NCBI RefSeq assembly: GCF_026914185.1
Contig: NC_070570.1
Span: 372,001-436,000 of the forward strand
DNA length: 64,000 nucleotides
Direction of reading: 5' to 3'
Source of the DNA: Puccinia triticina
Taxonomy: Eukaryota > Basidiomycota > Pucciniomycetes > Pucciniales > Pucciniaceae
The number at the start of each line of letters is the position of its first letter. Within the stretch, counting starts at the first letter, position 1. Shown here piece after piece: positions 24,052 to 45,602 of this stretch. The position numbers and the translations under genes are program-made. Below the pieces are notes generated by a model. That model saw only the letters and a program-made list of their open reading frames with translations, was not told the DNA's origin and ran no database searches.

Positions 24052-24242
24052 ACCGATCTCTAGAAGTGCAATGGGGGCAGCTTTTCGCCCACAAGTGGAA
24101 CGGCCCCTACCGAATTGTCAAGCAGGTTCAAGGGGGTTCTTACGTCCTCGCGGAGCTTGATGGGACGGAGCTCAAACTCCGTTTCGCGGCGGATCAGGTC
24201 AAGCGGTACTTTCCGCGTGGGGGCATTACTGACCAAAAGTAA
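24052..24242 (+). pseudogene. Integrase C-terminus of a Ty3 element related to C and D (fragment E)
   Basis: The last ~63 residues of integrase, from NRSLEVQWGQLFAHKWNG through GSYVLAELDGTEL to the stop, which is embedded in AAGTAAGT at 24239. It aligns without gaps to the ends of element C (45230-45416) and element D (31670-31860). Everything upstream is lost at the foldback junction. The 3' untranslated part keeps an intron-like module (24239-24355) and the start of the LTR at 24426. Confidence 0.85.
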
Positions 24243-24355
24243 GTCCCCCTCCTTAGTATGCACCTCGGGCTCTACTGCCACCTTCGTCGTAAGCTCTACT
24301 CCAGCCACTGTCGTGAGCCGCCCGCGGGGACCCCTCCTCTTTCCGCATTCTTTAG
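24239..24355 (+). other. Intron-like module, fragment E copy
   Basis: Starts GTAAGTCC at the pol stop, shares TATGCACCTCGGG and GTCGTGAGCC with the modules in C and D, and ends in a pyrimidine tract with TTCTTTAG. It is 117 bp, within the 108-122 bp range of all eight copies. It sits at the same place as the copies at 45413 and 31671. Confidence 0.55.
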
Positions 24356-24425
24356 GTTTTCCCTCTCTCTCTTGGCCGCGAATCCGTAGAAGGAGTCTGG
24401 GGACAGACTCCAAGTGGTGGGTGGA

Positions 24426-25640
24426 TGTGGTGGCCCCTCTCGTGGCCAGCTATTCAGGAGCATCACCGCCGCCAGCAGGATCATCAAGACTCAAGTTTAT
24501 TTTCACTTCCCAAGACTCAATTTCCACGCTGGGGTGGACAGAAATCCGTCATTGGGTCCCGCGACTCAATGAAAGTTGATTAGGTAATCCGACATTGGGT
24601 CCCGCGACTCAATGAAAGTTGATTAGGTAATCCGACATTGGGTCTTGCGACTCAATGAAAGTTATGGTGCAGTCCCGACTCCCCAGGCCTCAAGATCTCT
24701 TCTCATCACATTTCCACCTTCAACTGGCTCCCCTATCTCTCCTTTTCCTTCTGTCCATTTTCCCATCTCCCTTCCTTCTCAGTTCCCCATGCCTCTTCAG
24801 CTTTCTTGGTCCTAACACAGCGCCTGATGTGGGTTTATTTCCTTGTTTGTTTCTGATTTCTTTCTCTTCTGTTTGTTCTGCCTGTCTTGAGTGTTTTCTG
24901 TTTTCTCTTTCCTCTTTTTATTTTCCTCCCTCTGGTTCTTTTCTTCCTGACTCATCACGCTGTGTTTTCCTTAATTTTCCCTTGTGTTGTTTCCTTTCTT
25001 CTTTTTTATCTTGTTTGTTGTGAGTGTGTGCGCGTGTAGCGCGCGGAGGATGTGATGAAATGTATGTGACATGTCGCCCGGAGTCCAAGTTCAGCTCGAA
25101 CTTGGATGATGGGTGGCCATGGCATTCTGATCCCCGGAATACGGACCATCACTGAGCTTATAGATCCTATCTTCAGAGTTTCAACTTACGGGCTCCGCCC
25201 GCCGATCATCCTTCATCAGAGTTTTCCGGATCTTTTTCCTTCCTCTTCCTTAAGATCACATCTCCCTTCCCCTCAAACAAAACAACCGCCGCCGAGGATC
25301 CAAACCCCCGGCGAACTTCTCAAAACCACCCAAAACCCAATAGCTATCCCTGATCCCCCCCATTTTCAGCGCTCATCACCACGGACCACCCAGCCACGAG
25401 GGCAGCCTAAACAGCACCCATCCCCTCACACGACTGCCTCCGCTTGTACGGACAGGAGTCTCTCACCGCGCAGTTCCCAATTTCCGCACCAACGTTCCCG
25501 CTCTTGTCCATTCCCGCTTCCCGCTTGTCATTTGCCCCTGTTGCAGAGTCACGGCTCACCACAGTGGCGCTGTGGTAGTGCTTTGATACTTCCACACTCA
25601 GAGATGCACACAATAGAAAGCTCACTTGAGTATTGAGTCC
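24426..25640 (+). mobile_element. 3' LTR of fragment E (right end uncertain)
   Basis: Begins TGTGGTGGCCCC at the place where elements C and D start their LTRs, after the same GGGACAGACT leader. It shares with the D and G LTRs the CTAACACAGCGCCTG block, the GTCCAAGTTC/GAACTTGGAT hairpin at about 25085-25112, and the GCCGCCGAGGATCCAAAC block near 25290. A three-copy 43-bp repeat lies near its start. I could not fix the CA terminus; 25640 is an estimate. Confidence 0.6.
24549..24664 (+). repeat. 43-bp tandem repeat, three units
   Basis: Three near-identical 43-bp units within the LTR of fragment E. Each contains CATTGGGTC..GACTCAATG, which is itself an inverted repeat. The C, D and G LTRs lack this expansion. 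Confidence 0.8.
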
Positions 25641-25736
25641 CTCTCTGTCCTTTCGCCAATACCCTCCCGCTTCTTAAATTTCAACTGTCCAGGCTGAGTC
25701 AAAGCTTCCTCCGCCTGGATAGCTCGGCCGACAACT

Positions 25737-27065
25737 AAAAATCCTTTGCGGGAGGCTCCGCACAGTGATGCGGTTCCCCGTCGCCCACCTCCTTCACCCA
25801 GTCTCCGCTTTGAGGCTGGAAGATGATCGTCTTGTACTGCTTTCCGTTGTGGAACTACTCTTGGGATGAATAGAGCTGGAGAGGGAATGGTGCTTTAATG
25901 GGCTACCTTTCTGGGAACAAGAAAAAGATATAAGAGTGTGGACTCTTATGGAAAGGTGTGGCTATAGAGGATTCTTGAGGTATGTCTTGAGGGTTACTTT
26001 TCTACTAATCTAATATTTTGTACACAGATAACAAGCTTGTCCAATCTGATTTATTGGCATAAGCAAGGCTAATGATAGGTGACCAGTGATCTGAATTACT
26101 TTGACAGGATCTGATGGGGAACAAATGAAGAGGAAAACAACCCAGTTTATATACACAAGAAAGAGGAGCCATGAGGAAACAAGGATAACCTGAAGGGAAG
26201 CATAGAACATTCTACTTCTATAGGATGAAACAGCCATGTGGTCAGAGTAGTGGGTCAAGGAGTCACATGATGGTGTAATAGTGGGTGGGGATGATGCCAT
26301 CTTCTGGGGGCTATGGTTCAATCTTCCTAGTTAGAGGAGGGGATATGTGAGACATAACAGGGGTAGAATATTCTATGATCTAAGATAGGAGTAGTTAGGC
26401 GTTTCAGGAAGTGTTTCAGGAAGTGTTTCAGGGAGAAATAATCTAGGTGGGGTTTGGGGCTATGTCTAGTATAATGTGTACCATGTTGGGTTTGGAGGGT
26501 GAAGGGTTTCAAGGGTGCTTATACATCTTTGAGCACATGGTTCTAAGGAAACACTAGAAGAAGGGGGTAACATGTGATCTGGGTAGATGTTTGAGACTAG
26601 GGAGAGGGTTTATCCAAGAGAGGGGGAGTGTGGGAAGAGGGAATACTATTATCCAGGGTATGACCATTGAGTGGGGATGTTGAGGGCCTTGGGCTTTGCT
26701 GACAAGGGGGCCAGAGGTATGGGAATTAGTCTTGAGGTGTGACAGCCTTGTGATTGATGGTTGCTGGTTTTCTGGGTAGATCAGGATTGGCTTACCACAC
26801 CGTGAGTCCCTTCCACCCGCATCACTTCCTCTTGCCTTGCGGGGAAGAAGCGCAATTGCGCTTGAAAAGCAAAGAGAGCCGGTCGGCCAAGAATGATTTT
26901 GTGAGACCTGGTCACCAAGAACAATAGCTTTTTGACCACTTTTGCCACCTCCACGGTCTCTGCTTCCGCTATCCCGTCCACTTCCCAAGTAAACCCGCCC
27001 ATCGTGAGGATTTTGATGTGTGTTTTCCGCAGCACTAAACTTTCCCGCACTAGTCCTCCAGCTCC
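25737..27065 (-). pseudogene. Retropepsin-like fragment of a Ty3 element, split by a solo LTR
   Basis: On the minus strand a retropepsin-like C-terminal region reads ILTMGGFTWEVDGIAEAETV and SHKIILGRPALFAFQAQLRF, comparable with LIFGRPFLMDFNATLNF in element C. It breaks at 26804 and resumes in phase at 25843 (KQYKTIIFQPQSGDWVKEV) when the 25848-26799 LTR and one TSD copy are removed. A stop follows at about 25737. The catalytic aspartate region and the rest of pol are not present. The upstream limit (~27065) is uncertain because the Myb-like gene starts at 27273 on the other strand. Confidence 0.5.
25848..26799 (-). mobile_element. Solo LTR (TGTGG type), TSD CCGT
   Basis: A 952-bp solo LTR. 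The plus-strand ends are TGTGGAACTACTC and GGCTTACCACA, flanked by perfect CCGT duplications at 25844-25847 and 26800-26803. A TATATAAAC box on the minus strand near 26150 supports minus orientation. Removing it restores the frame of the surrounding protease fragment. Its terminal bases resemble those of the LTRs at 5065 and 32605, but the body differs, so it is another member of the same broad LTR class. Confidence 0.9.
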
Positions 27066-27272
27066 GCCCACAGCCATGCTGCAGATGTATTCAGTGGTAC
27101 AACTGTGATTAGTGCTCCAAATGGCCAACCCTACACCCCCAGCAAGGCCGATCGCCAATACCAGCGCGCTTGTGGGTATATCCCCCAAACATCCAACCCG
27201 TCGTTGATCCCATATGACGCAGCCCCCCTGGCCCCTCGGTAACAGCACCCGCCTGTCCAATCCCGCCTTCCA

Positions 27273-30260
27273 ATGGCTCCCCAGCAAGCAGCCGGCCAGT
27301 ATATCCCTATGAATGTGCACCGCGGTGGCCAGTACTTACCAAACACCCACACGGGGATCAAACAAACAACCCCCAGTGGTGCAATCACCTACAACCCGGA
27401 AGCCTGTGTCCAGTATGTGCCGATAGATGCAGCGGCCCTCAATCACCTACTCCCCAGCTTGGAATCCCTCGGTCTGGCTAGTCTTCCCAACCCCGCCGGC
27501 CCAATTCCTCACTCGGCTATCCCTCTCAAACAACCACCTGCAACTGCTCCCGCCGCGCTTGCCTCCAGTGACAAAAAGCGGGCCCGGGGCTCGGCGCGCA
27601 AGGCCAAACAATTGGCAGAACAAATTGGCAAGGATGACGAGGAGGCAGCGGTTGGGCGTGCCTACCAGTTGAAGAAGGCCGCGGGCCGGGCTGCCAGTGT
27701 CAAGGACAAGGCCGCGGCAAAACGAGCACTTGGCATTATCCGCGAGACGGAGTCATCTGCCGTTGTTCCTCGCTTGGTATGGGGGGATGCCAACTCCCTT
27801 GAGCTCCTGGCGTTCTGGAGATCCATGAAGGATACGCACACTGAGCTCAAGAATAAGGAGGCCGGCTTCAAGAACTTCAGAAAGTTCGCCAAGGATTTCG
27901 AACTTGATCCGGATCTATTCCCCCTCCTGGCTGAGCTCGATTGCGCGCAGTTGAAGCGTCGATACGACGCCATAATGGTGCTTTATAGGGTATGTTTCAC
28001 CCCCCTGAATTGTGTGGCTCATGGGCGCATGAACTAATTCTTTCCTCCGTCTCAGGCTGTTAAGGATGTTGTCGCTCGTTCCCGGAGTGAGGCGATTCAT
28101 GCTGCGTTGGCCGAGGAAAAACTCTCCCTACCGGTATGCTCCTTTCCCATTGGCCCTTGTTGATGGGTTATAAATTCTGACTTATGCTTCATTGTCTGTA
28201 AGCTTTGGGAATTCCTGTGCAATATGTACAGTGGTAACCAAGCCGCAGATGGCTTTGGTCACAAGGAATTGGGACAGTCCTCTGAAGATGTCAGCCGGGC
28301 TACTATAATAAGTTAGAGCCCGGCTAACAATTCTAGCATATGTAGTAGTGGCGCAAAGGGCCGCTAAAGATAAGATAGAAAATACATTCTTTCACTATTA
28401 GTAGCGGCGCAGAGCGCTGCGCACAAGGATAGAAAGGGTATTCATTAATGAATATTAATTGCAGCGCACCAGAAACTATGCAATACATATCCCCTCAAAC
28501 CTTAAACCAAGTTGAGGGGTGAATAGTAGAACTCCAGCCGAAAACGGCTGGAGAACCAGTTATGAATTGGTTGAAACCCGTTCTCAAGGTAAGAGAACGG
28601 GTTGCGAGACATTCTCCAGTTCGATAGAACTAGGAGAAACAACAACAGAAGGACCGATGTGAAACGGCCAGAGGAGTGTAGCAGTAAAATGAACTACTGA
28701 ATCTCCCCGGCCGCAGATGAACAGTCCGAGAATGACTAGAAAATCAAATACCCTCCCTCGGATCAAGGGAGAGAACCCGTCATCTCCAAAAGATGAATGA
28801 CAGGAGCGATGTGGATACTAGAATTCTCGAACGCTCCTGTCCACGCTCTACTCCTCCGGCCGAAGAACCGAAGGAAGGATAACTAAACAGAGCTACAACC
28901 CTACCGGTTGTAGCTCAAATATATAAATGGGGGCCTTTGGGCGATTCAAGGTCCCCCAGATACATTTATAACCACTTTGAAGCTTTTCCCATCTCGCCCT
29001 CGTCTAATTGACCTGTGCGCCAGCCGGACCTTGCCTCGACCTCGGTTTACTTGAATCAGTAGTCTTTTTTACCGCAGACCCTCGCTGAGAGTAAGTCTGC
29101 GTTTTTTCCCTTTTCTATCGGGATTTTATCCCAAACTATATCCTGGGTGCGAGTAATCGCGCAACTACCCCCTTTAGTCACAGGACACAAAAACCCCTGC
29201 GCATTTGGTGCGCAGGCCCTGTAAGAACCGCGGAGGGCACTAAACCACCCCAGGCGCCCCTGGCCCCTCCGTTAACCTCTTTTTTTGTTTCATTAGAAGT
29301 AGCTTTTCCTAAGCTACTTTGCACTTCTACCGCGCATTTGCTGCGCGCTACATCGCACCGTGCTCTGTCGCCGGCGTAGCTAGAGGAGTATTCATACTCT
29401 TGGCATCACCGAGCCTGACAGAAGACAAGTACTCTGATGCGGGAGTGGGGGCTCCAATTTCCGATTTGGACGAGGACAATGCGGAAGGAGCTCCACCCAA
29501 CAAACGGGGCGCCCCCAAGCCTCGTAGACTTGGCAAAAACCACCGTCTATCCGACCAACTAACGCCCGCCGAGAGGGCGCTAGACCCATCGTTGGATGAT
29601 GAGCTCTCAGAACCCCCGACGGCTAGATCGACCCATAGGGTCCCTGCAAGCAAAACCGCACCAGTTTCGACCCCCACCCCTGGATCAACTGGACTTAATG
29701 GTCGCCCGCCGACTGTTGGCGCCAGCGTCCCCCGCCGCCGGGGCCGGACTGAAGAGGCCCCGAAGAAGGACACCAGTGATGCGATGGCCCTGAGGGCCTT
29801 GATGGCAAAGACGCAGGAGACGAATACCGCCTGGATGATGGACAAACGGGCTTGTTCCGAAGCGACACGCAAGGAATAATGGTTAGCTGAGTCGGAGCAG
29901 AGGCGATTGATGGAGGAGGTGCGAAGGGACAAACATCGTGAGGCGGCGGCGCGGGACGAACGCAAGGATTGACAACGCCAAGATGACCTGGCTCAAGCCA
30001 AAATGGACCGTGAGGAGGCTAAGGAGCGATCTCGAGATGTGGAGCGCAAGGCGGATCAAGATTTGGTCTTAAAGCTTGCAGAGGCCAAAGAACGACAGCG
30101 CGAGGCGGACCGGAAGGCTGAGCGCGAAGAGGCCCAGTTAGCCAGACTGGAGGAGGCTCGTCGATACGAGGCGGCTCAGGCCCGCCAGGAGCAGTCCCGC
30201 CAGGCATACGATGCGGCGATGTTAGCTATCTTGGGAAACTTGGGTGCCAGAGGGCCGTGA
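27273..30260 (+). pseudogene. Myb/SANT-like gene with two introns, split by an LTR
   Basis: Exon 1 (27273-27989) encodes a P/Q-rich start, a basic K/R/A segment and a Myb/SANT-like region (LELLAFWRSMKDTHTELKNK ... LKRRYDAIMVLYR). Exon 2 is 28056-28133 and exon 3 starts at 28203; the introns are 66 and 69 bp with GTATG donors and CAG/AAG acceptors, all in phase. The LTR at 28289-29420 interrupts the acidic region, and removing it with one GAAGA copy joins SSED to KYSDAG in frame. The C-terminus (29880-30260) is a long E/R/K/A-rich coiled coil like NAM-associated or trihelix-type proteins. Stops TAA at 29877 and TGA at ~29970 look like C-to-T changes. Role unknown; it may be transposon-derived. 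Confidence 0.65.
28289..29420 (+). mobile_element. Solo LTR (TGTCAGCC type), TSD GAAGA
   Basis: An 1132-bp insertion starting TGTCAGCCGGGC and ending GAGCCTGACA, flanked by perfect GAAGA duplications (28284-28288 and 29421-29425). It opens with an AGCCGGGCT/AGCCCGGCT hairpin and continues as a chain of hairpins, for example GAGCTACAACC/GGTTGTAGCTC near 28890. A TATATAAAT box near 28920 fits a plus-strand promoter. The termini match those of the element F LTR. No coding domain is present, so it is a solo LTR. Confidence 0.85.
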
Positions 30261-30634
30261 GGGATGTCTCTCCTTCCCTTGCCCTGACTCTCCTCGCGGC
30301 CCTTGCGGCCCAGTTGCGATCAGATGATTTTTCTTCACATTGTTGTCTCTCCCTTGCTTGGTCCCTCCTCGCGCCCCGCTGGCATTTGGATGATTTTTCA
30401 TGTTATTGTATATAGCATTCTCTATTTTACAAATAACATACACGGTCTCAGTTTTACTGGTACATCGGACATCTGTTGGCAGCTCGGTCCAACGGGCCTG
30501 AAGAACTATTCCCACCGCACCAATTTGGGGGTGAGGTTGGGACTTATCATATCCTTTGCGATATGAATATCCAGCGGCCCGTGTCTTGGCCTGTATTGCG
30601 GCCGCTACCACAAATCAGCCGGGGGGGGGGGCGC
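30261..30634. other. No gene seen
   Basis: Sequence between the end of the Myb-like frame and the D LTR. It holds a run of ten G at 30621-30630 and no recognisable coding or RNA feature. Confidence 0.4.
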
Positions 30635-31506
30635 TGATATAAAGCTCTATTGGAGCAGAGGGATTTCCCTAGTCCCAATATTCCCTCAACTCAATGGCCA
30701 TCACGGGCCCCACCACCCGAAGCGCTCGCAGGGCCATGAATACGTACGACGAACTAATCGCCTCCACCCCAGCACAACCGCTATGGAGCTCCGCTCAGTG
30801 GGGCCGGCGGCAGCGCTGTGAGGGGAAGGTGTCAAGTGACTGCCCTCAAACTGATCCGAGTGAAATCGCCGGTGTGATCGAAAATAGATAGCTAGTGGGG
30901 GGGGTGGTTTTGAGAGTTCGCCGTGGTTTGGATCCTCGGCGGCGTTTGTGTTTGGGCGTTGAGTTTCAGGGATCAGGCTTGGTGCGCAGGTATCGGAAAA
31001 TAATCCAAAGTCAATCAAATTTCTTGATAGCCCGTCGTGGATCAGACTGAATGCTATGGCCTCCTATCCTCCAAGTTCGCCGGGAACTTGGATTCCTGGA
31101 GGCCTGTCACAGACGTTTCATCATCTCCTCGCGCGCCGTGCGCGCGCACACAACACAAACAACAGAGAAAAGAAAAGAAACAGACAACATGAAGAGGAGA
31201 AAAACAAAGAAACAGAACCAAGAGCTGAAAAACATGAAACCAATGAGAACACTAAGCAATGAAAGAGGAACCAAGAGGAATGAAAATAAACATGACCATG
31301 AAAAGAAAGAAACAGCCCAGAAATAAAAGACAAACAAACAAGAATAAACCCACAGACAGATCTGTGTTAGGACCAAGAAAGAAAAGATGAGACAGGAAGG
31401 GAAGTGAGGAATAATAAGAAGGAAGGGGAGGAAGCTGGACTTGAGAATTGAGAATTGAGTCTTGAGTCTTGAGAATCTTGAGTCTTGAACCGGTGTGGCC
31501 ACCACA
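30635..31506 (-). mobile_element. 3' LTR of element D (inner end uncertain)
   Basis: On the minus strand it begins TGTGGTGGCCAC at 31506, directly after the same pre-LTR leader as elements C and E. It shares the ATCCAAGTTC/GAACTTGGAG hairpin near 31070-31095 and the GCCGCCGAGGATCCAAAC block. The other end is placed at 30635 because TGATATAAAG there is preceded by GCGC and the resulting 872 bp fits the 814-908 bp of its relatives. That end lacks independent support. The D 5' end is missing, so no TSD test is possible. Confidence 0.55.
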
Positions 31507-31557
31507 TCTACCCCCAACTTGCAGTCTATCCCTAGACTGCTCCTGCCGCGCACCATC

Positions 31558-31671
31558 CTAAAACGCAAGAAACAAAAGAAGGTCCCGCCGGGCTCACATG
31601 TGTGGCAATTGTAATGCTTACAAACAAACGGTAGAGGATACCCTGAGGTGCATACACATGGGAGGACTTAC
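31558..31671 (-). other. Intron-like module, element D copy c
   Basis: Begins GTAAGTCCTCCCA at the pol stop, keeps TATGCACCTC, GCCACACATGTGAGC and a long pyrimidine tract, and ends GCGTTTTAG. It is 114 bp and collinear with 45413-45534 in C. Confidence 0.55.
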
Positions 31672-32604
31672 TTTTGCTCAGAAGTGCCTCCACGGGGAAA
31701 ATATTGTTTGACCTGATCCGCCGCACACCAGCGCTTCAGCTCCGTGCCGTCCAGCTCCGCCAAGACGTAAGAACCTCCGTTAACTTGCTTCACGATTCTA
31801 TACGGGCTGTTCCACTTGTGGGCAAAGAGTTGTCCCCACTGTACTTCGAGAGAACGGTTGTGAGCAAGCACTAGGTCGCCGGGCGAGAGAGAATGACGAA
31901 GTTGGCTGGCGTTCCTTTCTTCCCAGTAGCGGACGGACTCTCCACAAGATTTCATCATCCGATCATAAGCAAGCTGACGAGTTTCTTCGCTCCGTTTGAA
32001 TTGTCTAGACCAAGCCACGAGCAGGTCAGAGGTTTCACGAACCGCCTCCCAATCAACTCCTAGAAAAGATTCTATGTCAAGGTCAATGGGCAAAGCCGCC
32101 CGCTGTCCGAAAACAATTTTGTACGGCGAGTGCGAGTATCTGGTCGTGCGTTTCGCCGAGGTCCGATCAGCGAAAAGAACTAGTGGCAAGAACTTTTGAC
32201 AGTTCTTGCCTGACTCGCCTGCCAACTTGATTAGGGCGGACTTGAGCGGCGCATGTCCCCTCTCGACCATGCCTTGAGCTTTGGGGTAATAAGGAGTTGA
32301 CACCCTATGCTGGCCTGGCAGTGCTCTCAACATTTCTGCCAGTGCACCGCCGAACTCCGATCCACCGTCTGTCGAGTAAGCCCGCGCCAAACCATATCTC
32401 ATTGTCCAGTGCTCTTGGAGGAAAGCGGCCACGGATTCTGAGTTGATGTTGTTGAGGAATTTTGCCTCAACCCAGCCTGAGAAATCGTCACGAGTGACAA
32501 TCAGATACTTTGCACCCCCGGCCTTGATGTGTACCACATCCATCTACACACGTCCAAACACGGTCTGTTCGCCAGTTGGGTATCTCGCCTCTGCGGGTCG
32601 CCGG

Positions 32605-36119: not shown

Positions 36120-36231
36120 CTGCAAATGAAAAACCAAAAGGAAAAGGGCCGCTCACGACTGTGGCACGAGATAGAGTTTTCGGAAACAGGGGCGCATCTT
36201 GCCTCGGAGGTGCACATTGGGAGGAACTTAC
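36120..36231 (-). other. Intron-like module, element D copy b
   Basis: Starts AAA/GTAAGTTCCTCCCA, includes GTGCACCTCCGAGG and GCCACAGTCGTGAGC, and ends TTTTTCATTTGCAG. It is 112 bp. The pol frame is open through it. It matches the C copy at 42150-42261. Confidence 0.55.
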
Positions 36232-36545: not shown

Positions 36546-36660
36546 CTGGAACCGGAGAAGAGGGAAGATTGGGGGATTTGCTCACGAGTGTGGCACTAGA
36601 TAGGGTTTTTGATGATGCGGTAGTAGCTACCCGGGGATGCATACTATGGGAGGAACTTAC
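36546..36660 (-). other. Intron-like module, element D copy a
   Basis: Starts AAA/GTAAGTTCCTCCCA, includes TATGCATCCCCGGG, CTACTACCGC and GCCACACTCGTGAGC, and ends CTCCGGTTCCAG. It is 115 bp. The pol frame is open through it. It matches the C copy at 41916-42024. Confidence 0.55.
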
Positions 36661-36814
36661 TTTCATAGTTTGTGTTCCCGCGAGTTCCCCATACTGCATA
36701 TCCTTCCTCACGCTTGGGTCGCGGGCCCATTGTGTTCTACTTGAAGATCCGCAAGAGAAAAGGTCGGAAATTTGAGGAAAAGGAGATTGAAACGAAGTCA
36801 ATTGAATTGTTATG

Positions 36815-37154
36815 AGCCGCGTTCACGCGCCGTGCGCTGCCCCGGGAGGACATGTCACTCAGTTGTACATACATGTCACGCGCCTTTGTTACTTAGAGGC
36901 GCTCAGGGGAGATCATCATAGTTTCCCCATCTAGCAATCTACATTCTAGCCAGGACCACCAGACCGCCTCTCAACCCCCTCAGACCAGTCCTAACATATT
37001 GCTAGATCTACATGCGGGGACAAGGCCGACAAAGAAAATTGAACCAACAAACAAGAAAAGAACAAAACAGAACGATTACCAAACTAGAACCAAACCCAGA
37101 CCACACAGAATCCGCAACATACGAACTTGATCCGAACACAAGCAAACCCTCACA
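36815..37154 (+). mobile_element. Probable 5' LTR and leader of element B
   Basis: TGTTATGAGCCGCG at 36815 and CAGTCCTAACA ending at 36998 would give a 184-bp LTR. I see no second copy to confirm it and no clear tRNA match directly after it (TATTGCTAGATCTACATG). 36999-37154 is an A/C-rich leader up to the gag start. The boundary with the truncated element D is close to 36801-36815. Confidence 0.35.
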
Positions 37155-38328
37155 ATGGACGACGATGCTGCAGCGTTACGGGCCCGAGTTGAGGAACTCG
37201 CAGCCTCCATCCAAGAGGAACGGAGCCTTTGACAACGAGCCGAGGCCAAACTCACGGCGACTAGAGTCGGCATGGTTGCCCCGGCAGTGGTGCCCATCCT
37301 ACCAGGACAACCGCCAAACGTCCCACAGGCTCTGAACGAAGCCCCCGCGAAAGGACCCAAAGTGGGTCTTCCAGACAAATACGACGGCACAAAGGGGCCG
37401 AAGGCGGAGGTCTATGTGACCCAGATCAGCCTATACGTCCTCTCCAACCCCCGGATGTTTCCCGACGACCGCAGCAAGATTATATTCTCGATCTCTTATC
37501 TCACCGGCCAGGCTAGCGAATGGGCCCAACCGTTCACAACAAAGCTTTTCGCCAGCCAACCAGTCTCATACCTTGAATTCGCCACAGCGTTTCAAATGAT
37601 GTATTACAATACTGAACAAAAATCGAAGGCGGAGAAGGCACTACAACAGCTGAAACAGACGAAATCTGTGGCGCATTATACATTCCAGTTCAACCAGCAC
37701 GCCTCAAACACCGGGTGGGAAATGTCGACCCTAATGAGCCAGTACCAGCAGGGGCTCAAAAAGGACGTTTGATTAGCGCTTGTGATTGCGCGGGCCCAGT
37801 TCACCGCTCTGACCGACCTCAGCAACCTAGCTCTGAAAATTGACAACGAGATTAACGGCGCCGATGTGGAACTCCGACCGGTGCTGGGCCGTCGGCAGTT
37901 ACTGGAAGGGAATGTTGCGCTGTGCGCTGCCTTCGCGGTGGTCCAGGGGAGATTCTAGGATTCGAGAGATAGCGGAATTTTTGGGGGGGGGGATTTTGGT
38001 TTGAGACGACGAGAGGTAGATTCCCGTCGGCGGTGGTTTGTTTGTTGAGAATCTGGGGAAAAACCGGCGAACTGGACCGGGGAACAGTGATCTTAAGAAG
38101 AGGAATCTGGAAAAGGATCGGCGCGGGGCTGAGAGGAGAAACTCAGAAGCTCCGCGAGTATATCGGTGAACAAGGATCAATAAACTTTTAGATTCGAGTT
38201 GATGAGATGATCTGACAAAGAAAATTTTTGGTTCAGACGAAATCCCATGCCGCCCCATCGTCTGAGTTCGAACTGAACTCAGACTCCGGGGACTGCGACA
38301 TGCTGCGGACAAGTCATCATACACCCGC

Positions 38329-39142
38329 TGTGGTGGACAATCTGGTACACGCGGAGGAATCAAGCTTTTTGCCGCGCACGGCGCGCGCCAGAGGACGTCA
38401 AGACTCAAGACATCAAGATTCAGCTTTCAGCCCTTGAGGCCTCCTCAAGTTCAACGGCGCGGCGTGGCGCGCATCCTCAAGGCGTTTCAGGTCTTCTTTC
38501 CCCCCCCCCTCTTCCTTGTGTTTTGGCTTTCTTGGTCCTGTTTTCTTTTAAGTTTATCTTTCATCATGTTTTGTTATTTCCTCTTTCGCATTGCGCGCGT
38601 TGGATAGGTTTTGTATGAGGAGGGTTGGTTTGTTTTGTTTCTGTTTTGTTTTGTTTTGTTTCTGTCTTTGTCTTATGTTGTTGTTGCGCGCGCGTGCGCG
38701 CTAGGTTGTGATGAGATGTCTGCTACATGTCACCAACTCCAAGGTTTGAGTTCAGTTTGAACTCAGGCTTTGGAGCGGCATGGACCCACTCTGAACGATA
38801 TAGTTTTCAGTCAATCCATCAAAGTTCAAAGTTCACGTCTTGGCATTTGTTTGCCCGAATCTCACGGCTTTTAAGTTCTTTACCCCGCAAAACGTCGATC
38901 TCCTCCACCTTCCTGGTTTAGATCACACCTCTCACTCCTGCCGGCAGTATCCCGGCCTCTCTCAAAACAAACCCGCCGACGCGCATCTCCCGCCGTCGTA
39001 AAATCAAACCCCCTTCACGCTTACACGAATCTCAGCGCTCTTTTTCGGCCAATCATCCCGGAGGGCATACGTAGATAAATCTCAGCTTTTCTTTTTCCCC
39101 TCCCCGAACTGCTGCCGGCCTAGCACCGGCCAGAGTTCCTCA
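38329..39142 (+). mobile_element. 5' LTR of element C
   Basis: 814 bp, TGTGGTGGACAATC to CAGAGTTCCTCA. It carries the family hairpin TTGAGTTCAGTTTGAACTCA near 38746, a CGCGCGCGTGCGCGC stretch near 38686 and an inverted CCGGCC..AGCACCGGCC near the end. It provides the promoter and, as the 3' copy, the polyadenylation region; I do not see a canonical TATA box. Confidence 0.92.
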
Positions 39143-39144
39143 TT

Positions 39145-39196
39145 TGGTCCCCCGAGCCGGGATCGAACCAGCGACCTCAAGATTTACAGTCTCGGC
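39145..39196 (+). promoter_or_regulatory. Primer-binding site extended into tRNA-Tyr anticodon arm
   Basis: Two bases after the LTR, TGGTCCCCCGAGCCGGGATC starts a stretch whose reverse complement reads like the 3' portion of a tRNA: CCA end, acceptor strand, T-arm (GGTTCGATCCC), variable loop and an anticodon arm CGAGA-CTGTAAA-TCTTG with anticodon GTA (tyrosine). Stem pairing 27-43 is intact, allowing one G-U. No intron is present at the position where eukaryotic tRNA-Tyr genes carry one, so it corresponds to a mature tRNA. An ordinary primer-binding site is about 18 nt; this match runs to about 50 nt. Confidence 0.7.
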
Positions 39197-39299
39197 GATT
39201 TGGACGGTCTCGAGACGCTTGGCGGTCTTTGTTTTCTTTTTTTTAGGTGTTATTTTGTTATTTCTTTGGGTTCAGCGGCGGAGGCACAGGAGACTAAAA

Positions 39300-39407
39300 G
39301 TAAGTCCTCCCAATTGTGCACCTCCGAGGGCTCTTCTACTTCGAAGTCAAAGCATTACGTTGCCACGGTCGTGAGCCTCGAAAAATTTTCCGATCTTTCC
39401 TCTTCAG
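39300..39407 (+). other. Intron-like module, element C copy 1 (leader)
   Basis: GTAAGTCCTCCCAATTGTGC to CTTTCCTCTTCAG, 108 bp, in the untranslated leader just before gag. It shares CACCTCCGAGGGCTC, AAGCATTACGTTGCCAC and GTCGTGAGCC with the other copies. A second pyrimidine-AG (GGGTTCAG) lies upstream at about 39273. Confidence 0.6.
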
Positions 39408-39420
39408 TTAGGCCGTCGTG

Positions 39421-41556
39421 ATGGCAGAACCTGTTGGCGCTGAACAGGTAGCGCGGATGGTGAAGATCAAGCCGCAAGATAAGTCTTTGGGCTTTGATGG
39501 CTCCAACGTGGAGCGCTTTTTGGCCGACTATCAGCTAGCGGCACGTCTAGATGGTGCCTCCGAGATGGACATGGCTCAGCAAGTCCGGTTTTTCATCCGC
39601 ACGGCAGAGGTGAAGGATGTAGTCGAGACGCTAGACGGATTCGACCCTCCCAACTGGACTCTGCTCAAAGCGGCGATGCTCTCCCATTGGGGCAAGATCG
39701 ACACCGCGCGTTTTACGACTAGAGATCTGGAGGATTTGGTGCAAGGGTGGAAGGACAAAGGTGGCGTTCGATCGGTAGTGGATTTTCAGGACTTCCGCAA
39801 GTCGTGGCAGCCAATCCAGTCCTACCTGTTGCGGAAGGACCACATCGATTCCGTCGAGGAAATTAAGAGGTTGTACTATCAGTCTTTTTCATTGGGCCTT
39901 CAGGAGCGCATCCGTGATCAGTTGATCAAGGATAAGACTATGATCACAACTCAGGATAATAGATTCAAGCTCCCCACCTTCGAGATTCTGAAGAAGGCGG
40001 TAGAAGAAGTGATGAAGAATCAGACGGCGCTTACCTTTGAAGGTTCTCGTGCGGACGTTCCGGTGCCTGCTGAAGTCTTCAAGCAATCCAACGACGTTAT
40101 GCAGAAGATGGAATCGGACCGTCGCCCCCGAGAAGCTCCTACACAGACGCGGGCCCCTGCGACAGTGGACGAGATAGAGCGAATGTTACAGTCCTTCGAA
40201 CAGCGCTTGGAGAAGAAGTTTTCAGCACAGGCTCGGCCGACGACGCCGCGGGGACCTATGGTGTGCTACTATTGCCACAGAGAGGGTCACGGGCTGGGAC
40301 GATGCGCGGAGCTGCAGAAGGACAAGGATGAAAAACTGGTGGAGCAGCGAGGAGGTAGTTTCTTCTTACCAAACGGGGCGCTGATTCCAGTGGACAACTC
40401 TCGTCCTATCCGTCACGTGGTGGCGTCCTACCAGCCGAAGACGTCTGCAGCGACGGCTGCTGAGTCCGAGTTCAGGACCACGTGCGGTTCGCTTGAGCCG
40501 TGGAGACCGCCTTCGATTACTTCGCAGTCTTTCACGGGTGTTTATCAGGCGGATCCAGCTCGGAAGAAGCATGAGGCTTCTAAGCCCTATAAGGCTCCGA
40601 TAGTTCCGCCCTCGGCAGCTCAGCGACCGCCGAGGAAGAAGTCCATTGGTACACCCAAATCCGGCTCAGATACCGAGGAGATGGGAGCGGAACCAGAGCT
40701 ATTCGAGCGAGGACAGCCCCTCGCTGCCAACGACGATGCTTCGAAGGATGACCCGGTTGCGACGGAAGTTCCCAAGCCAAACTCCCCCACTCCTAAGGTC
40801 AGATTTGAGCGAGGAGTGGCTAGAGATCATCCGCAGGCAGTGGACGGTGTATTGCGGAAAATGTTCGACTTGCCAGTTCCTAACGTCACGGTTTCGGAAA
40901 TTTTGGCTATTTCTCCCTCGGTTTCCGAAGGCATGAAGAAGTGGGTTTCAAGGCGGCGTGTGGAGGTTGGAGCTGAAGAGATGAGGGTCGCGTCAGGGAC
41001 ATTGGCGGAGGACTCGGAGGGCGAAGGCAGGATTGACGGCATGAAGCTCTATTCATGCCCGTTGGGTCATATGCCGTGTCTGGTCGGCGACGAGGAGAGT
41101 AACGCCCTTCCTCTCATTGACTCGGGATCTCAATTGAATTTGATTTCAGACACGATGGCTAACAAATTCAATATTAGCCCACGTGTAAATTTTAGCTCCG
41201 CCGTTTATGGCATCGGGAACCAGGCGTGTGAGCTTGTCGGCGTCGCGGAGGATGTCCCGATCCGAGTAGGGAAGACCATTGTTGGCACCTGTCATTTCTG
41301 GATTACGCGTATGGATGGGCCGCTCATTTTCGGCAGGCCTTTTCTCATGGACTTCAACGCGACGCTGAATTTCGATAACCAAGTAGGCGAACGTATTCTG
41401 TTGCCGGACTCAACGGGCCGCAAGATCGAGGTCTCTTTGTGCTCAGTGGACTCCGGCCGATGGGAGCGCGAATTTCCTGGCCAGGGGCGCAAGGCGGTTC
41501 TTTCTCACAAGGGAAAGGCTCGCGACGACCCTTTGGAGGGTCGCCATTTTTTGTAG
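39421..41556 (+). CDS. Gag-protease of element C
   Basis: 711 residues from ATG 39421. Residues ~1-230 are a helical gag core (DKSLGFDGSNVERFLADYQL, capsid-like). The CCHC knuckle CYYCHREGHGLGRC is near residue 282. A proline/charged linker runs to ~480. A retropepsin with LPLIDSGSQLNLIS near residue 565 closes with GPLIFGRPFLMDFNA. Gag builds the particle and the protease matures gag and pol. The start follows an intron-like module and is the first methionine of the frame. It ends CAT TTT TTG TAG, a slippery heptamer directly before the stop, so a fraction of ribosomes should enter pol. Confidence 0.92.
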   Translation: MAEPVGAEQVARMVKIKPQDKSLGFDGSNVERFLADYQLAARLDGASEMDMAQQVRFFIRTAEVKDVVETLDGFDPPNWTLLKAAMLSHWGKIDTARFTTRDLEDLVQGWKDKGGVRSVVDFQDFRKSWQPIQSYLLRKDHIDSVEEIKRLYYQSFSLGLQERIRDQLIKDKTMITTQDNRFKLPTFEILKKAVEEVMKNQTALTFEGSRADVPVPAEVFKQSNDVMQKMESDRRPREAPTQTRAPATVDEIERMLQSFEQRLEKKFSAQARPTTPRGPMVCYYCHREGHGLGRCAELQKDKDEKLVEQRGGSFFLPNGALIPVDNSRPIRHVVASYQPKTSAATAAESEFRTTCGSLEPWRPPSITSQSFTGVYQADPARKKHEASKPYKAPIVPPSAAQRPPRKKSIGTPKSGSDTEEMGAEPELFERGQPLAANDDASKDDPVATEVPKPNSPTPKVRFERGVARDHPQAVDGVLRKMFDLPVPNVTVSEILAISPSVSEGMKKWVSRRRVEVGAEEMRVASGTLAEDSEGEGRIDGMKLYSCPLGHMPCLVGDEESNALPLIDSGSQLNLISDTMANKFNISPRVNFSSAVYGIGNQACELVGVAEDVPIRVGKTIVGTCHFWITRMDGPLIFGRPFLMDFNATLNFDNQVGERILLPDSTGRKIEVSLCSVDSGRWEREFPGQGRKAVLSHKGKARDDPLEGRHFL

Positions 41557-41622
41557 ACTCGGTTGATTCGGGAGGCGGCAGATTTAATTTAGAGTCTCGA
41601 CATCTAGCCGCTGAATCAACTG
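41547..41622 (+). promoter_or_regulatory. Minus-1 programmed frameshift signal
   Basis: Slippery heptamer T-TTT-TTG (41547-41553) in gag phase, immediately followed by the gag stop TAG. After an 8-nt spacer a stem forms: GTTGATTC (41562-41569) pairs perfectly with GAATCAAC (41613-41620), and inside it GCGGC (41575-41579) pairs with GCCGC (41607-41611). Loop bases GAGTCT (41592-41597) can also pair with AGACTC (41555-41560). The minus-1 frame is the pol frame (HF-FVDSVDSGGG) and stays open to 45416. Confidence 0.85.
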
Positions 41623-44600
41623 CAAAACTAGAGACTCACAGGCCCTATTTCTCTTTGTCTTCTCAAGTTCATTCCGAAAAACACGCAAAAGAATTCAAAA
41701 AACATTTACAAAACCGTCAAAAATCTAAAAAAATCTCTCTTCAAGTTGACTCGGTTCCGTCTCTAGTTCCTCCTCAATCTATTCAATCTCCCTTCGACTC
41801 TCATCATCTGGCGGTTCCGTTTAAGGCTTTCAGTGGGTTCGGGTTTAGTTGCGACCGGGTGGAGGCGGATGAGGAGGAAGAAATGGGTATCGTGCGGAGG
41901 TCGGGAGAACTGAAAGTAAGTTCCTCCCAGTTATGCACCTCCGAGGGCTCTCTACTACATTGTCGAAAGCATTACGTCGCCACACATGTGAGCCTTGGAC
42001 AATTTCGTTATGGGCTCCCTCCAGGTCCGAAGTTGGCCGCGCTTGCCGAGAAGCCGCTCCGCAATGAGGATAAACTAGGCTCTCTGGTGTTGGAAGGCGG
42101 TTGGGGCAAGGTGGAATTTGGGATTCCATGGGAGGAGATTGGTACAGAAGTAAGTTCTGACCAATATGCACCTCCGAGGGTATCTACTACCGAAGTTGTC
42201 GAAACTCTATCATGTGCCACACTCGTGAGCGATCCCCAAATGTTTGGTTTCTCTTATTCAGAGAAGGCACCCTTCGAGGATCGGTCCGAGCATCGAACAC
42301 GGATTCTGCTGGAGTGCGGATTGCGATGGCACGAACAACTGGTGTTGTTGGACTCTTGGGCGAAGGGCGGATTTCTAGCGTTCGCTGCCAAGTACAAGCC
42401 GGTGTCTCGGAAAATCAAGCCTCTTAACCAGCCGATGCCGCAGGAGATTAACCCGCCACTTAGAAGACCGCCGCTGTCGAGGGATCCCTACCGCGAGTTG
42501 CCGAGATCCATGGCGGGGCCCTTTGTGCCTAGGGGTCGCGTAACTGAGGAAAGGCTGAAGGTGGTGAACTTTGGCCCCGAGGGGTGGTTGTCTCCGGATG
42601 AGTTGAACGTTATCAAGAACGTGCTGGCGGAAAGAAATCTCTCAATAGCTTTCACGGAACGTGAACGGGGTTTGTTGAAGGAGACTTACGGCTTGCCCTA
42701 CATCATCCCAGTGGTAGAGCACGTACCTTGGCAGAAGAGGCGAATCCCGATCCCAGCCGCTAAAAAGGACGAGTATATCCGGGTCATACGTGAACGCGTG
42801 GAAACGGGCCTGTACGAGCAGTCCACGTCGAGCTATACGAGCCCGGTGTTTTGCGTTTTGAAAAGCAACGGGAAGATTCGGGTGGTGCATGATCTTCAGG
42901 CCCTCAACAAGGTGACCATCAAGGATGCTGGGGTGCCTCCAGCGACGGAGGAATTTGTTGAATCTTTCGCTGGGCGTGCGTGTTACGGGCTCGGCGACAT
43001 TATGGGCGGGTATGATGAGCGCGCTCTGCACCCTATCTCTCGACCGCTTACAACCTTCGACACGCCATTGGGTCGTTTTCAGTTAACGCGACTCCCACAG
43101 GGTGCGACTAATTCTGTGGCCGTGTATCAGGCGCAGATGCTTTGGATTCTGCAGGAGGAAGTCCCGGAGTACGCCGGGATATTTATAGACGATGGCGGGA
43201 TAAAAGGTCCCGTTTCCGACTATGATCAGGAGTGTCTACCGTGGCATCCCGGAATTCGTCGTTTTATCTGGGAGTACGCGACCACTCTCGAGCGGATTCT
43301 GTTTCGCATTGAAGAATCTGGGTTAACCGTCTCGGCGTCGAAATTGGCCGCGTGTGTTCCGGCACTTGAGATCGTCGGGCACGTAGTGTGCAAGGAAGGT
43401 CGTAAGATGTCTAAAGTCAAAGTGAACAAGATCTTGTCGTGGCCGACACCTGTAAACCCTACGGAAGTGCGCGGGTTCTTGGGAGTGGTGGTCTACGTGC
43501 GGATCTTCATACCTCAGTTGTCCGAGATATGCCTCCCGTTACGTCGTCTGACGAGGAAAGATTCGGAATGGGAGTGGACAGAGGAGTGCGAGGAAGCGTT
43601 TAAAAGGCTGAAGATCCTGGTGGGCCAGGACATTGTTCTGGTGAAGATCACGTACGGGCCGGACGCGGGCAGGCTCAAGCTGGCGGTCGATTCGAGCTTT
43701 CATGCAGCAGGGGCGGTTCTCACTCAGGAAGATGCGAACGGTCTAGATCGGCCGGCTCTCTATGAATCCCTTCTTTTTTCAGACGTCGAATCACGTTATT
43801 CTCAACCCAAACTCGAATTGTGCGGTGTGGCGCGTATCCTCAAGAAAATGCAGACGATACTGTGGGGCCAGCACTTCGAGCTCCAGGTCGACGCTCACTC
43901 GCTGATAGAGATGATCAACGCTCCCAGTCTGCCCAACGCGCCGATGACGCGGTGGGTAGCGTTCATCCAGCTGTTTTCCTTTGATATTGTGCATAGACCG
44001 GGCAAGTCTTTCACAATGCCTGATGGACTCTCTCGGCGACCTAGAGGGGACGATGAGTCGGATCCTCCCTCGGATTTTGATGAAGAATCTCCCCACATAA
44101 AACCGCGACACTCGTATACGGTGGGCGCGGAGGATGACTACTCTGGGTATCAAGAAGGCTATTGGCTCGAGATGGAAAGGTTTTTAGCTACGCTGCACAG
44201 GCCGGAAGGAATGGACGCTAGGGAGTTCCGTGCTTTAAAGCGACGGTCTTCGGATTTTTTCCTGCAGGCTGGTCGACTGATGAAGAGGGGAACCCCTCTG
44301 CCTAGGATAGTGGTCACCGCGCCGTCGAAACAACAGGAGATTCTGACAAGGATGCACGAGGACTTGGGTCACCGGGGGTCGACGGAAACCTATCGCCGGA
44401 TTTCGGAGCGCTTTTGGTGGCCAGCGTTGAAGCAGGCGGTGGTCAAGTGGTGCCAGAGTTGTGAGGCCTGTCAGAAGAAGGACTTGCGGAGGCCGCATGA
44501 GCTGCGGTACCCGACTGGCGAGTCTACGGTTTTTGGGCGAGTCTCAATGGATGTGGTCCACCTTAAAGCGGGCGGAGCTAAGTATTTAATCGTAGCTCGT

Positions 44601-45416
44601 GACGACCTTTCGGGTTGGGTAGAGGCCAAGATACTTAATAATCTTACGTCTGAGGCAGTGGCGGCTTTTCTCCAGGACCATTGGACCATGCGCTACGGGT
44701 TGGCCCAGTCTTACTCGACGGATGGAGGATCGGAATTCGGAGGCGCGTTGGCGGAGATGCTGCGGGCGCTGCCGGGGCAGCACAGAGTGTCCACACCGTA
44801 CTATCCGGAGGGTCAAGGAATGGTCGAACGGGGTCATGGACCGCTCAAGGCGGCGTTGGTGAAGCTGGCCGGGGAAAGCGGGAAGAACTGTAGGAAACTC
44901 CTCCCTTTAGTTCTTTTTGCGGATCGCATTTCCACTAAGCGGACTACGGGCTATTCACCGTATGAGTTGGTGTTTGGGCAACGTGCGGTGCTCCCGTTGG
45001 ATTTGGAGATCGAATCTTACCTGGGAGTCGACTGGGAGACGGTCAAGACCACGGCGGACTTGTTGGTGGCGCGCTCTCGCCAGCTGGAGCGCAGTGAAGA
45101 ATCTCGTGGATTGGCGTACAGGAGGATGATGGATTCACGCGGGGATTCGGTGCGCTACTGGGCGGAAAAGCAGCCGGGTGTCGCGAGGGAACCTCTCAAG
45201 CCGGGCGACAAAGTGTTGGCTTACAACCGCTCCCTCGAGACTCAGTGGGGACAGTTGTTTGCCCATCGATGGAACGGGCCCTTCCGCATCGTGAAGCAAG
45301 TCGACGGCGGCTCGTATGTATTGGAGGAACTCGACGGCACCGAGCTCAAGCGTCGGTTTGCGGCGGACCAGGTCAAGCGGTTTTATTCTCGCGAGGACAT
45401 TCTTGACCAGAAGTAA
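41554..45416 (+). CDS. Pol of element C: RT, RNase H, integrase
   Basis: Expressed by frameshift from gag; the frame is open from 41439, so its own first methionine is not meaningful. Counting from 41439: RT about residues 460-640, with SPVFCVLKSNGKIRVVHDLQ and catalytic GIFIDDGG (an F-I-D-D box) near 582. RNase H starts LAVDSSFHAAGAVL near 747. Integrase zinc head HRGSTETYRRISERFWWP..CQSCEACQKK is near 975-1013. The DDE core is SMDVVHLKAGG (1036), YSTDGGSEF (1093) and GMVERGHGP (1127). The C-terminal domain ends GTELKRRFAADQVKRF. No stops or frameshifts. The first ~280 residues lack a known domain and include two intron-like modules. Confidence 0.92.
41916..42024 (+). other. Intron-like module, element C copy 2
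   Basis: AAA/GTAAGTTCCTCCCAGTTA to GGGCTCCCTCCAG, 109 bp. It shares TATGCACCTCCGAGGGCTC, CATTACGTCGCCACACATG and GTGAGCC with its relatives. Pol stays open through it; precise removal shifts frame (109 is not a multiple of three) and meets a stop within 18 codons, so splicing here would not make full pol. Confidence 0.6.
42150..42261 (+). other. Intron-like module, element C copy 3
   Basis: GAA/GTAAGTTCTGACCAATAT to GGTTTCTCTTATTCAG, 112 bp, with CACCTCCGAGGG, CTACTACCG and GCCACACTCGTGAGC. Pol is open through it. Its acceptor has the strongest pyrimidine tract of the coding copies. Confidence 0.6.
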
Positions 45417-45534
45417 GTTCCTCTCCAAGTATGCATCTCCCGGGTAGTTACTACCGCGTATCGTCAAAACCCTACTCTATGCCACGCTCGTGAGCACCGC
45501 GGAGGCCCTGGTTTGTTTCCCTTTCTTTCTCTAG
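45413..45534 (+). other. Intron-like module, element C copy 4
   Basis: AA/GTAAGTTCCTCTCCAAG to CCCTTTCTTTCTCTAG, 122 bp. The TAA of the donor is the pol stop codon, so splicing would remove the stop and add a short tail before the LTR. The same arrangement is seen in D (31671) and E (24239). Confidence 0.6.
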
Positions 45535-45602
45535 GACTTGGAGTTCTTTTAGGCACGGTATTGGACGAGCAGTCTAGGGACAGACTGCAAGTCATGGGTG
45601 GA

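What the first reader, a model, noticed from the sequence alone, without database searches (positions are those of the whole stretch)
24239..45534. A family of ~110-bp intron-like modules repeated within one Ty3 lineage
Eight copies (39300-39407, 41916-42024, 42150-42261, 45413-45534; minus strand 36660-36546, 36231-36120, 31671-31558; 24239-24355) share GTAAGTYCCTCCCA, a TATGCACCTCCGAGGG block, a CATTACG..GCCAC block and a TCGTGAGC block. Each then ends in its own pyrimidine tract plus AG. All are 108-122 bp. Paralogous introns at up to four positions of one retrotransposon look like introner-type elements captured by a retroelement. Two lie in the open pol frame without breaking it when unspliced, and one carries the pol stop in its donor. 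They could regulate full-length versus subgenomic RNA.
Basis: partly seen in the sequence, partly recalled or inferred. Interest (0 to 1): 0.87.

Follow-up and report, generated by a model that had tools for sequence, protein, structure and literature searches.

The report
Repeated structured introns in rust retrotransposons
A family of jumping genes in a rust fungus carries the same short, folded intron at up to five places; copies elsewhere in the genome show that two of these introns can be cut out, while the ones inside the enzyme gene stay readable, which suggests built-in control over which RNA becomes a new copy and which becomes message.

Summary
Two of four positions are spliced introns: a sister element lacks leader copy A exactly GT to AG, and five places lack end copy D by junction-spanning matches. 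Copies inside pol are kept readable: 47 of 47 measure a multiple of 3 from donor to GTGAGC; A and D copies do not. Splicing pol copy C would end pol within 15-101 codons; no C-spliced copy was found, B was not searched. New: the last ~24 exon bases pair with the intron start into a hairpin with the donor in its loop, supported by compensatory changes. The copied unit crosses the splice site, so it is not a classical introner; none of 20 sampled loci was an evident host gene. A Ty1/Copia family has a similar leader intron. Best reading: a repeated, structured, alternatively used intron that divides transcripts between genome/Pol RNA and spliced message, like BARE1 or copia but multi-copy. No RNA data were available.

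The parts
38329..39142 (+). 5' LTR of the complete plus-strand Ty3 element
   Evidence: 814 bp identical to 45603-46416
39143..39196 (+). primer-binding region; looks complementary to much of the 3' half of tRNA-Tyr(GUA) (tRNA recalled)
   Evidence: follows the LTR directly; 52 bases identical in related element L107
39272..39334 (+). 5' splice-site hairpin of module A (exon arm plus intron arm)
   Evidence: R2 match E 3.2e-15, not in the training set
39300..39407 (+). module A: leader intron
   Evidence: exactly absent in sister copy L059, 394 aligned flanking bases identical
39421..41556 (+). gag ORF (711 aa)
41379..45416 (+). pol ORF (RT, RNase H, H2C2 integrase), open through modules B and C, stop in donor of D
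41888..41951 (+). 5' splice-site hairpin of module B
   Evidence: R2 match E 5.2e-18 (this copy is in the training set)
41916..42024 (+). module B inside pol, readable unspliced
42122..42184 (+). 5' splice-site hairpin of module C
   Evidence: R2 match E 7.4e-7; fold -25.4 kcal/mol with GUAAG as loop
42150..42261 (+). module C inside pol, readable unspliced
45387..45449 (+). 5' splice-site hairpin of module D
   Evidence: R2 match E 4.1e-5
45413..45534 (+). module D: intron at the pol stop codon (AAG TAA)
   Evidence: absent at 5 other places by junction-spanning matches
45603..46416 (+). 3' LTR
36546..36660 (-). in-pol module (upstream one) of a degenerate minus-strand element
   Evidence: the hairpin model R2 misses it
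36120..36231 (-). module C of the minus-strand element
   Evidence: hairpin R2 E 5e-14
31558..31671 (-). module D of the minus-strand element
24239..24355 (+). module D of a third, fragmentary copy
25549..25616 (-). decayed ninth module
   Evidence: E 3.2e-5

Best explanation
Each module is one folded RNA unit made of a spliceosomal intron plus the last ~24 exon bases before it. The exon arm and the intron's first ~30 bases form a hairpin that shows the donor AA|GUAA in its loop; conserved internal blocks, an invariant small hairpin GCCAC-N3/4-GUGAGC and a free pyrimidine tract plus YAG follow. Shown: the leader intron (A) is removed base-exactly in an integrated sister copy and, by alignment, the intron at the pol stop (D) is missing at five places, which is what reverse transcription of spliced RNA leaves behind. 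Shown: modules B and C inside pol are kept open and in frame, so Pol is made from RNA in which they are retained; removing C shifts the frame and ends pol soon after. Inferred: the element makes two kinds of RNA from one transcript, unspliced RNA (genome and Pol message) and spliced RNA (Gag-biased message), and the hairpin repeated at the donors sets the ratio, by a bound protein or by folding. Inferred: modules multiply and are kept alike by template switching or conversion within the element during reverse transcription, not by introner transposition.
For: A excised exactly GT..AG in L059 with 394 of 394 aligned flanking bases identical; a second family, 72% alike over the junction query, lacks A from the donor on but keeps the exon arm; D missing in 5 junction-spanning matches among 40 scored candidates, three of them with equal query and target length (111/111), at 93, 93, 88, 88 and 77% identity. 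Frame constraint: 47 of 47 in-pol copies 0 mod 3 (lengths 72, 75, 78, 81) against A 3/3/3 and D 3/3/9; 46 of 47 open through module and flanks. RNA-level selection: the TGCACCTCC block is read in different frames in different in-pol copies (LCTS or APP) with the frame restored after it; the donor is GTAAGT in 81 of 85 copies (the model favours it); all 20 C copies with the [DEA]K[AS].F exon start have CAG with A in the free third codon position. Hairpin: 85.2% of cells paired versus 81.9 +- 0.7 shuffled and 41-58% slid; 25 double-change cells versus 11.3, 0 of 500 shuffles; re-pairing exon and intron halves among 30 dissimilar copies, 0 of 20,000 as stable. Conversion: 2050598 and 2051027 of one element identical from -30 to +56 with unrelated flanks.
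Against: No RNA reads were available, so no spliced RNA was seen. No C-spliced copy: the C-junction pattern gave 12 places versus 9 reversed, and the joined C flanks gave no spanning match among 9 candidates, with only one close relative to find; B was not searched. The folding model does not say that the hairpin hides the donor: opening -3..+8 costs 3.55 kcal native versus 3.95 with shuffled flanks (p 0.21), -3..+6 2.84 versus 2.85, and +1..+4 is easier to open than in shuffles, so repression by masking is not supported. Covariation is not uniform: the 14 copies not labelled in-pol give p 0.17 and 0.28, and sliding the 3' partners by +2 gives 21 double-change cells and 9 such pairs, close to or above the observed 25 and 8, though with only 49% of cells paired; the structure was drawn from one of the sequences, which favours it over slid versions. 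The D-less places were judged from alignment coordinates, not read base by base.
Confidence: 0.6

Rival explanations
1. The module is first of all a repeated RNA signal for packaging, dimerisation or Gag binding; splice sites at B and C are incidental or rarely used, and A and D are simply tolerated introns.
For: Hairpin with covariation; C not seen spliced; copying unit is the hairpin plus intron body rather than the intron; A and D can be lost in integrated copies.
Against: GTAAGT and YAG are kept at B and C, including a free third codon position at the C acceptor; a pure packaging signal needs neither. Loss of A in a transposed copy shows that A itself is not needed for packaging.
Confidence: 0.2
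2. The module is an export element: it lets intron-containing RNA leave the nucleus, like the transport elements of simple retroviruses and IAP/MusD, with one copy in every intron so that any retained intron carries its own pass.
For: One structured unit per intron, inside the retained sequence; such elements exist in LTR elements (passages of PMC12786077), and Cer1 needs a protein from a spliced mRNA to export unspliced RNA (abstract of PMC10309623).
Against: No Rfam family matches the plus-strand element (38300-46500); other similarity to transport elements was not searched. Part of the structured unit is exon and remains after splicing, as seen in L059 and L107.
Confidence: 0.12
3. Introner-type element: a mobile intron family that inserts into genes and was captured by a retroelement.
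For: Many similar introns, and intron number varies between elements.
Against: No evident host-gene copy in 20 sampled loci; copies share the upstream exon to about -22 to -30. A eukaryote-wide survey, seen in passages, names Pezizomycotina among introner-bearing groups, and its main text has no word beginning 'basidiomyc' (PMC9860276).
Confidence: 0.06
4. Conservation is protein-coding only.
For: In-pol copies are open.
Against: Copies A and D are non-coding or carry the stop; block 2 is read in different frames in different copies; A is excised exactly and D is missing at five places.
Confidence: 0.02

Closest known systems
BARE1 (barley Ty1/Copia) alternative splicing (PMC3735527, passages seen)
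   Same: A ~100-nt intron (104 nt) whose removal shifts the frame, knocks out pol and leaves a Gag-only message; other, unspliced RNA serves for replication.
   Different: One intron in a Copia element; DNA copies of its spliced RNA could not be amplified. Here up to five paralogous introns, a conserved donor hairpin, and integrated copies lacking A or D.
Drosophila copia and Arabidopsis EVADE short-GAG splicing (passages of PMC3735527 and PMC12786077)
   Same: Splicing separates Gag message from full-length RNA.
   Different: Copia removes 2950 nt, EVADE the protease domain; no repeated module is described in the passages seen.
Ogre (plant LTR element) intron (mentioned in PMC3735527 and PMC12786077; the primary paper is not held)
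   Same: LTR element with a spliced intron between its ORFs.
   Different: As recalled, Ogre splicing joins pol parts; here splicing at C would break pol, and there are several paralogous copies.
HIV-1 splice-donor hairpin (abstract of PMC4974535)
   Same: Donor inside a local RNA hairpin in a retroelement that must balance spliced and unspliced RNA.
   Different: The HIV-1 hairpin is said to mask the donor; here the model shows the donor in the loop, and the hairpin recurs at each intron.
Introners / introner-like elements (PMC9860276, passages)
   Same: Families of similar short introns.
   Different: Those sit in host genes; these were found in retroelements and their copy unit includes exon sequence.
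Exitrons (PMC4484396 and PMC10985678, search listing only)
   Same: In-frame intron inside a coding exon, open when retained.
   Different: Splicing of B and C is not shown; C is 1 mod 3 long, so splicing would not keep the frame.

Membership tests
Spliceosomal intron | GT..AG ends with pyrimidine tract | tested here: met
   8 of 8 window copies; GTAAGT in 81 of 85 held copies
Spliceosomal intron | Removed exactly from RNA | tested here: met
   Indirect, from integrated copies. A: base-exact in L059, donor-exact in L107. D: 5 junction-spanning places. C: no spliced copy found. B: not searched
Spliceosomal intron | Branch site | not tested
   Only noted by eye: the A of the invariant GUGAGC is a candidate but does not fit the fungal consensus (recalled)
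Introner | Copies in many unrelated host genes | tested here: not met
   20 C1 loci examined, none an evident host gene; not a whole-genome test
Introner | Target-site duplications or terminal repeats | not tested
   Copying unit instead spans the donor
Exitron | Open reading frame when retained | tested here: met
   46 of 47 in-pol copies
Exitron | Alternatively spliced | not testable with these tools
   No RNA data; no genomic trace for C
BARE1-like Gag-only splicing | Splicing shifts the frame and ends pol early | tested here: met
   For C: length 1 mod 3 and 15-101 codons open in the spliced frame, 21 of 21 rows; B not computed over the set
BARE1-like Gag-only splicing | Spliced message translated | not testable with these tools
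   Needs RNA or ribosome data
Donor-masking hairpin as in HIV-1 | Hairpin at the donor with compensatory changes | tested here: met
   with the reservations given under evidence against
Donor-masking hairpin as in HIV-1 | Donor less accessible than expected | tested here: not met
   Opening energy not above shuffles

The most novel reading that the evidence does not exclude
A portable splice-control cassette: one folded exon-intron unit that retrotransposons copy within themselves and that has passed between superfamilies (Ty3 and Ty1/Copia), displaying the donor in a hairpin loop to a dedicated element or host protein that decides between genome/Pol RNA and spliced message.
Probability: 0.3. 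Interest if true: 0.87.

Novelty: new variant of a known kind. Interest (0 to 1): 0.72.

Why it matters
Splicing in LTR retrotransposons is known, but in the cases I saw as one intron per element. Here the same structured intron recurs at up to five places of one element, in leader, pol and stop codon, with different coding consequences at each. That is a natural experiment on how a retroelement keeps introns although it replicates through RNA that can lose them: A and D are lost now and then, B and C are held by the reading frame. It also gives intron-less copies as a read-out of past splicing without RNA data, and a case where introns multiply inside a retroelement without being introners.

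Tried and rejected
Pure protein-coding conservation: rejected (block 2 read in different frames; A and D non-coding). Known RNA family: no Rfam match up to E 1 over 38300-46500. Masking of the donor by the hairpin: my own first guess, not supported. RNAalifold on MAFFT alignments gave five invariant pairs for the whole module and none for 58 hairpins; a subset of 24 of the 58 with uniform spacing was used for pair counts, and two more rows of the same gap pattern (L044:8186, L045:7506) were left out of it. Bacterial and viral collections: 45 and 2 pattern matches; the two viral contigs scored E 0.3-0.5 with the module profile, and the 45 bacterial ones were not examined further. Pol region 150-340 as a protein query: nothing at E <= 0.001. 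The window tRNA scan was empty. In some searches the gag query was one base out of frame; the class table was redone and only that one is used for the length counts, but the in-pol/other split and the sets use the older labels. In one search the column 'third_frame' repeats the retained frame by mistake and is not used; its acceptor rule itself asks for [CT]AG, so the 20 C copies were counted by the peptide motif. Rows without GTAAGT or without GTGAGC are left out of the length counts (78 of 86 counted).
Full report
What was checked. The eight modules are at the stated coordinates, 108-122 bp, all GT..AG. A model from the eight finds them at E <= 6.7e-17 and one decayed copy at E 3.2e-5; every other window match has E >= 1.4. 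The window lies in an 18-contig, 122.8-Mb assembly. The closest named relatives of pol are Puccinia coronata and P. striiformis proteins, and 41 of the 60 matches of gag are P. triticina proteins, best full-length one 69% identical, so the host is a Puccinia rust; P. triticina would fit the karyotype (recalled), but no near-identical protein was found and the species is not settled.

The element. The plus-strand element has 814-bp LTRs identical to each other (38329-39142, 45603-46416), a gag ORF from 39421 and a pol ORF 41379-45416 with RT, RNase H and H2C2 integrase domains. Modules sit at A (leader, between primer-binding site and gag ATG), B and C (inside pol) and D (pol stop). The minus-strand copies lie in stretches of the same lineage (36660, 36231 and 31671; blocks of 66-68% identity to the plus element), and 24239 is D of a third fragment. 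Some elements have a further in-pol copy, e.g. L044 with five modules. The P. coronata protein P0002 contains three module peptides, so the arrangement is older than one species.

How common. GCCACNNNYGTGAGC: 1,264 places, reversed pattern 6. From the 100 places listed, all on contig C1, I fetched 20 loci, chosen as 6 clusters and 14 isolated or paired hits: 14 have gag or pol homology, L051 and L057 are leader introns of another element, L050 and L058 hold decayed pieces, L046 and L053 have no module. None was an evident host gene, but the loci were not annotated in depth and this is 20 loci, not the genome.

Splicing read from integrated copies. A DNA search with the leader region gave 41 matches; one place on C8 matched in two pieces that meet at the donor and the first exon base. 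Read out, the stretch (L059) is identical over 394 aligned bases and lacks precisely 39300-39407. The same sister keeps B and C at 100% over 601 bases and D at 100% as rounded. With the intron-less junction as query, 2 of 40 scored candidates (of 105) span it: L059 and a second family on C8 at 72%, which read out (L107) keeps the exon arm up to the donor and then continues directly with another untranslated sequence, so its acceptor side cannot be judged. For D, joined flanks of 60+60 bases gave five spanning matches among 40 scored of 98 candidates: C3:1523146-1523256 and C3:1519448-1519558 (93%), C1:6718043-6718162 (88%), C18:302422-302532 (88%), C13:2884363-2884481 (77%); the remaining listed matches stop within a few bases of the junction on one side or the other. 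I could not read these five base by base. In one search all 40 scored places of the intact D region are single matches. Places at similar distance carry A and D, so loss after splicing is the simple reading; no tree was built. For C the same kind of search found no spanning match among 9 candidates, but only one close relative exists, and a junction pattern over all families gave 12 against 9 reversed. B was not searched this way.

Reading frame. Copies were classed by the gag or pol homology of their flanks. From donor to the end of GTGAGC, in-pol copies measure 72, 75, 78 or 81, 47 of 47 divisible by three; A copies are 3/3/3 and D copies 3/3/9 over the residues 0/1/2; 7 further copies were in neither class. 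One of the 47 (C1_27151) appears to lie in an internally deleted element. In one search, on a slightly different set of 47, which holds two copies without GTAAGT, 46 are open through 60 nt upstream, module and 75 nt downstream; the one with stops is a decayed copy. Many copies are related, so these counts are not independent events, but four different lengths occur. In the peptides, the TGCACCTCC block appears as LCTS in some and APP in others, with the frame restored afterwards: the bases are conserved, not the residues. For C, the acceptor is CAG in all 20 copies whose exon starts with the [DEA]K[AS].F motif, with A in the free third position of the S, A or T codon. Removing C leaves 15-101 codons in the new frame (21 of 21 rows). 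At D every copy reads AAG TAA across the donor (15 of 15; upstream 50 codons open in 13 of 15).

The hairpin. Upstream exon bases resemble each other around the modules (CGGAGG..GGGAGAACTARAA), and they pair with the intron's start (TTCCTCCC..TGCACCTCCG). Folds of -28..+36 are stable (mean -19.6 kcal/mol, shuffled -15.6; mean z -1.42 over 58 copies, 19 of them below -2; 166 control windows mean -0.14, 14 below -2). Exchanging exon and intron halves among 30 copies less than 75% alike destabilises them: own -18.7, mismatched -16.5, none of 20,000 re-pairings as stable; inner part alone p 0.0014; in-pol copies p 1e-4 and 0.0016; the 14 others p 0.17 and 0.28. On 24 copies of uniform spacing, 85.2% of 384 cells pair (shuffles 81.9 +- 0.7; slides 41-58%) and 25 cells have double changes (shuffles 11.3 +- 3.5, none of 500 as high); pairs with double changes 8 versus 4.7 (6 of 500), further pair types 19 versus 16.7 (31 of 500). 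Sliding by +2 also gives 21 double-change cells and 9 pairs, at 49% paired, so the double-change count alone is not decisive. A model from these 24 finds 7 of the 8 window copies and nothing else in the window up to E 1; one of the seven was in training, and the copy at 36660 is missed. The donor lies in the loop: G and U are unpaired with probability 0.76 against 0.48 and 0.54 with shuffled flanks, while +6 is more paired (0.34 against 0.45), and opening the U1 footprint costs no more than in shuffles. So the hairpin shows rather than hides the donor, and I cannot say from folding whether it promotes or restrains splicing. The second hairpin, GCCAC-N3/4-GTGAGC, is present in 77 of 81 copies with 28 different loops but an invariant stem, so covariation is silent on it; part of that invariance comes from the pattern by which many loci were fetched.

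How modules spread. In one element, modules 2050598 and 2051027 are identical from -30 to +56 while the sequence before that is unrelated; 1438762/1439194 and 1166785/1166464 share the exon arm and part of the intron. The copied unit therefore crosses the splice site. In the gag-only derivatives L047 and L055 modules have a front like C and a tail like D, as if modules were template-switch points that delete pol; this is by eye.

Copia. L051 has GTAAGTCGGTCTACGTGTGCACCTCC, GCCACAGCCGTGAGC and TTTTCAG in the leader before a 1430-aa ORF with RVT_2 (E 1.1e-44) and other Copia domains. L057 has a similar leader. The 17-base start occurs five times in the genome, all exact; with one mismatch allowed the reversed pattern gives 2. 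The loci were found through GCCAC..GTGAGC, so only the other blocks are independent evidence of kinship. The donor-hairpin model gives E 0.066 for L057 and nothing for L051, so the hairpin is not shown there.

Interpretation. Shown: real introns at A and, by alignment, D; in-pol copies kept readable; base-level conservation; a covarying donor hairpin, clearest in the in-pol copies; conversion within elements. Inferred: B and C are spliced in part of the RNA, giving Gag-biased message as in BARE1 (passages of PMC3735527), and the hairpin tunes this. Literature searches listed, in the titles and abstract starts shown (at most 20 each), no report of paralogous introns repeated within an LTR element or of such introns in rust retroelements; they cover open-licence papers only. 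A paper on non-autonomous LTR elements of rusts (PMC10886601, passages) does not mention such introns in the passages seen.

Noticed in passing
window 39143-39196: The primer-binding region looks complementary to much of the 3' half of tRNA-Tyr(GUA), anticodon included (tRNA recalled); 52 bases are identical in L107 although its surroundings have diverged, so an extended primer-binding site may be under selection.
   Followed up: partly
window 50218-55512 and 62687-63850: Tandem satellite of about 173 bp, partly in inverted orientation, with an element whose 300-nt end repeats are 99% alike (55552-62756) between the arrays; possibly centromeric.
   Followed up: no
window 21561-21813: Array of long poly-C runs separated by TCAACAGCAA-like spacers.
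   Followed up: no
L047 (C1:687573), L055 (C1:6957730): Gag-only, pol-less derivatives with modules that look like hybrids of C (front) and D (tail), suggesting modules as recombination points.
   Followed up: partly
G000 C1 near 4156138, 4233512, 4310870: Three module sets with the same motifs about 77.4 kb apart, suggesting a large tandem segmental duplication.
   Followed up: no
G000 C3:1519448 and C3:1523146: Two D-less places 3.7 kb apart on the same strand at the same identity, perhaps a nested or tandem pair of elements.
   Followed up: no
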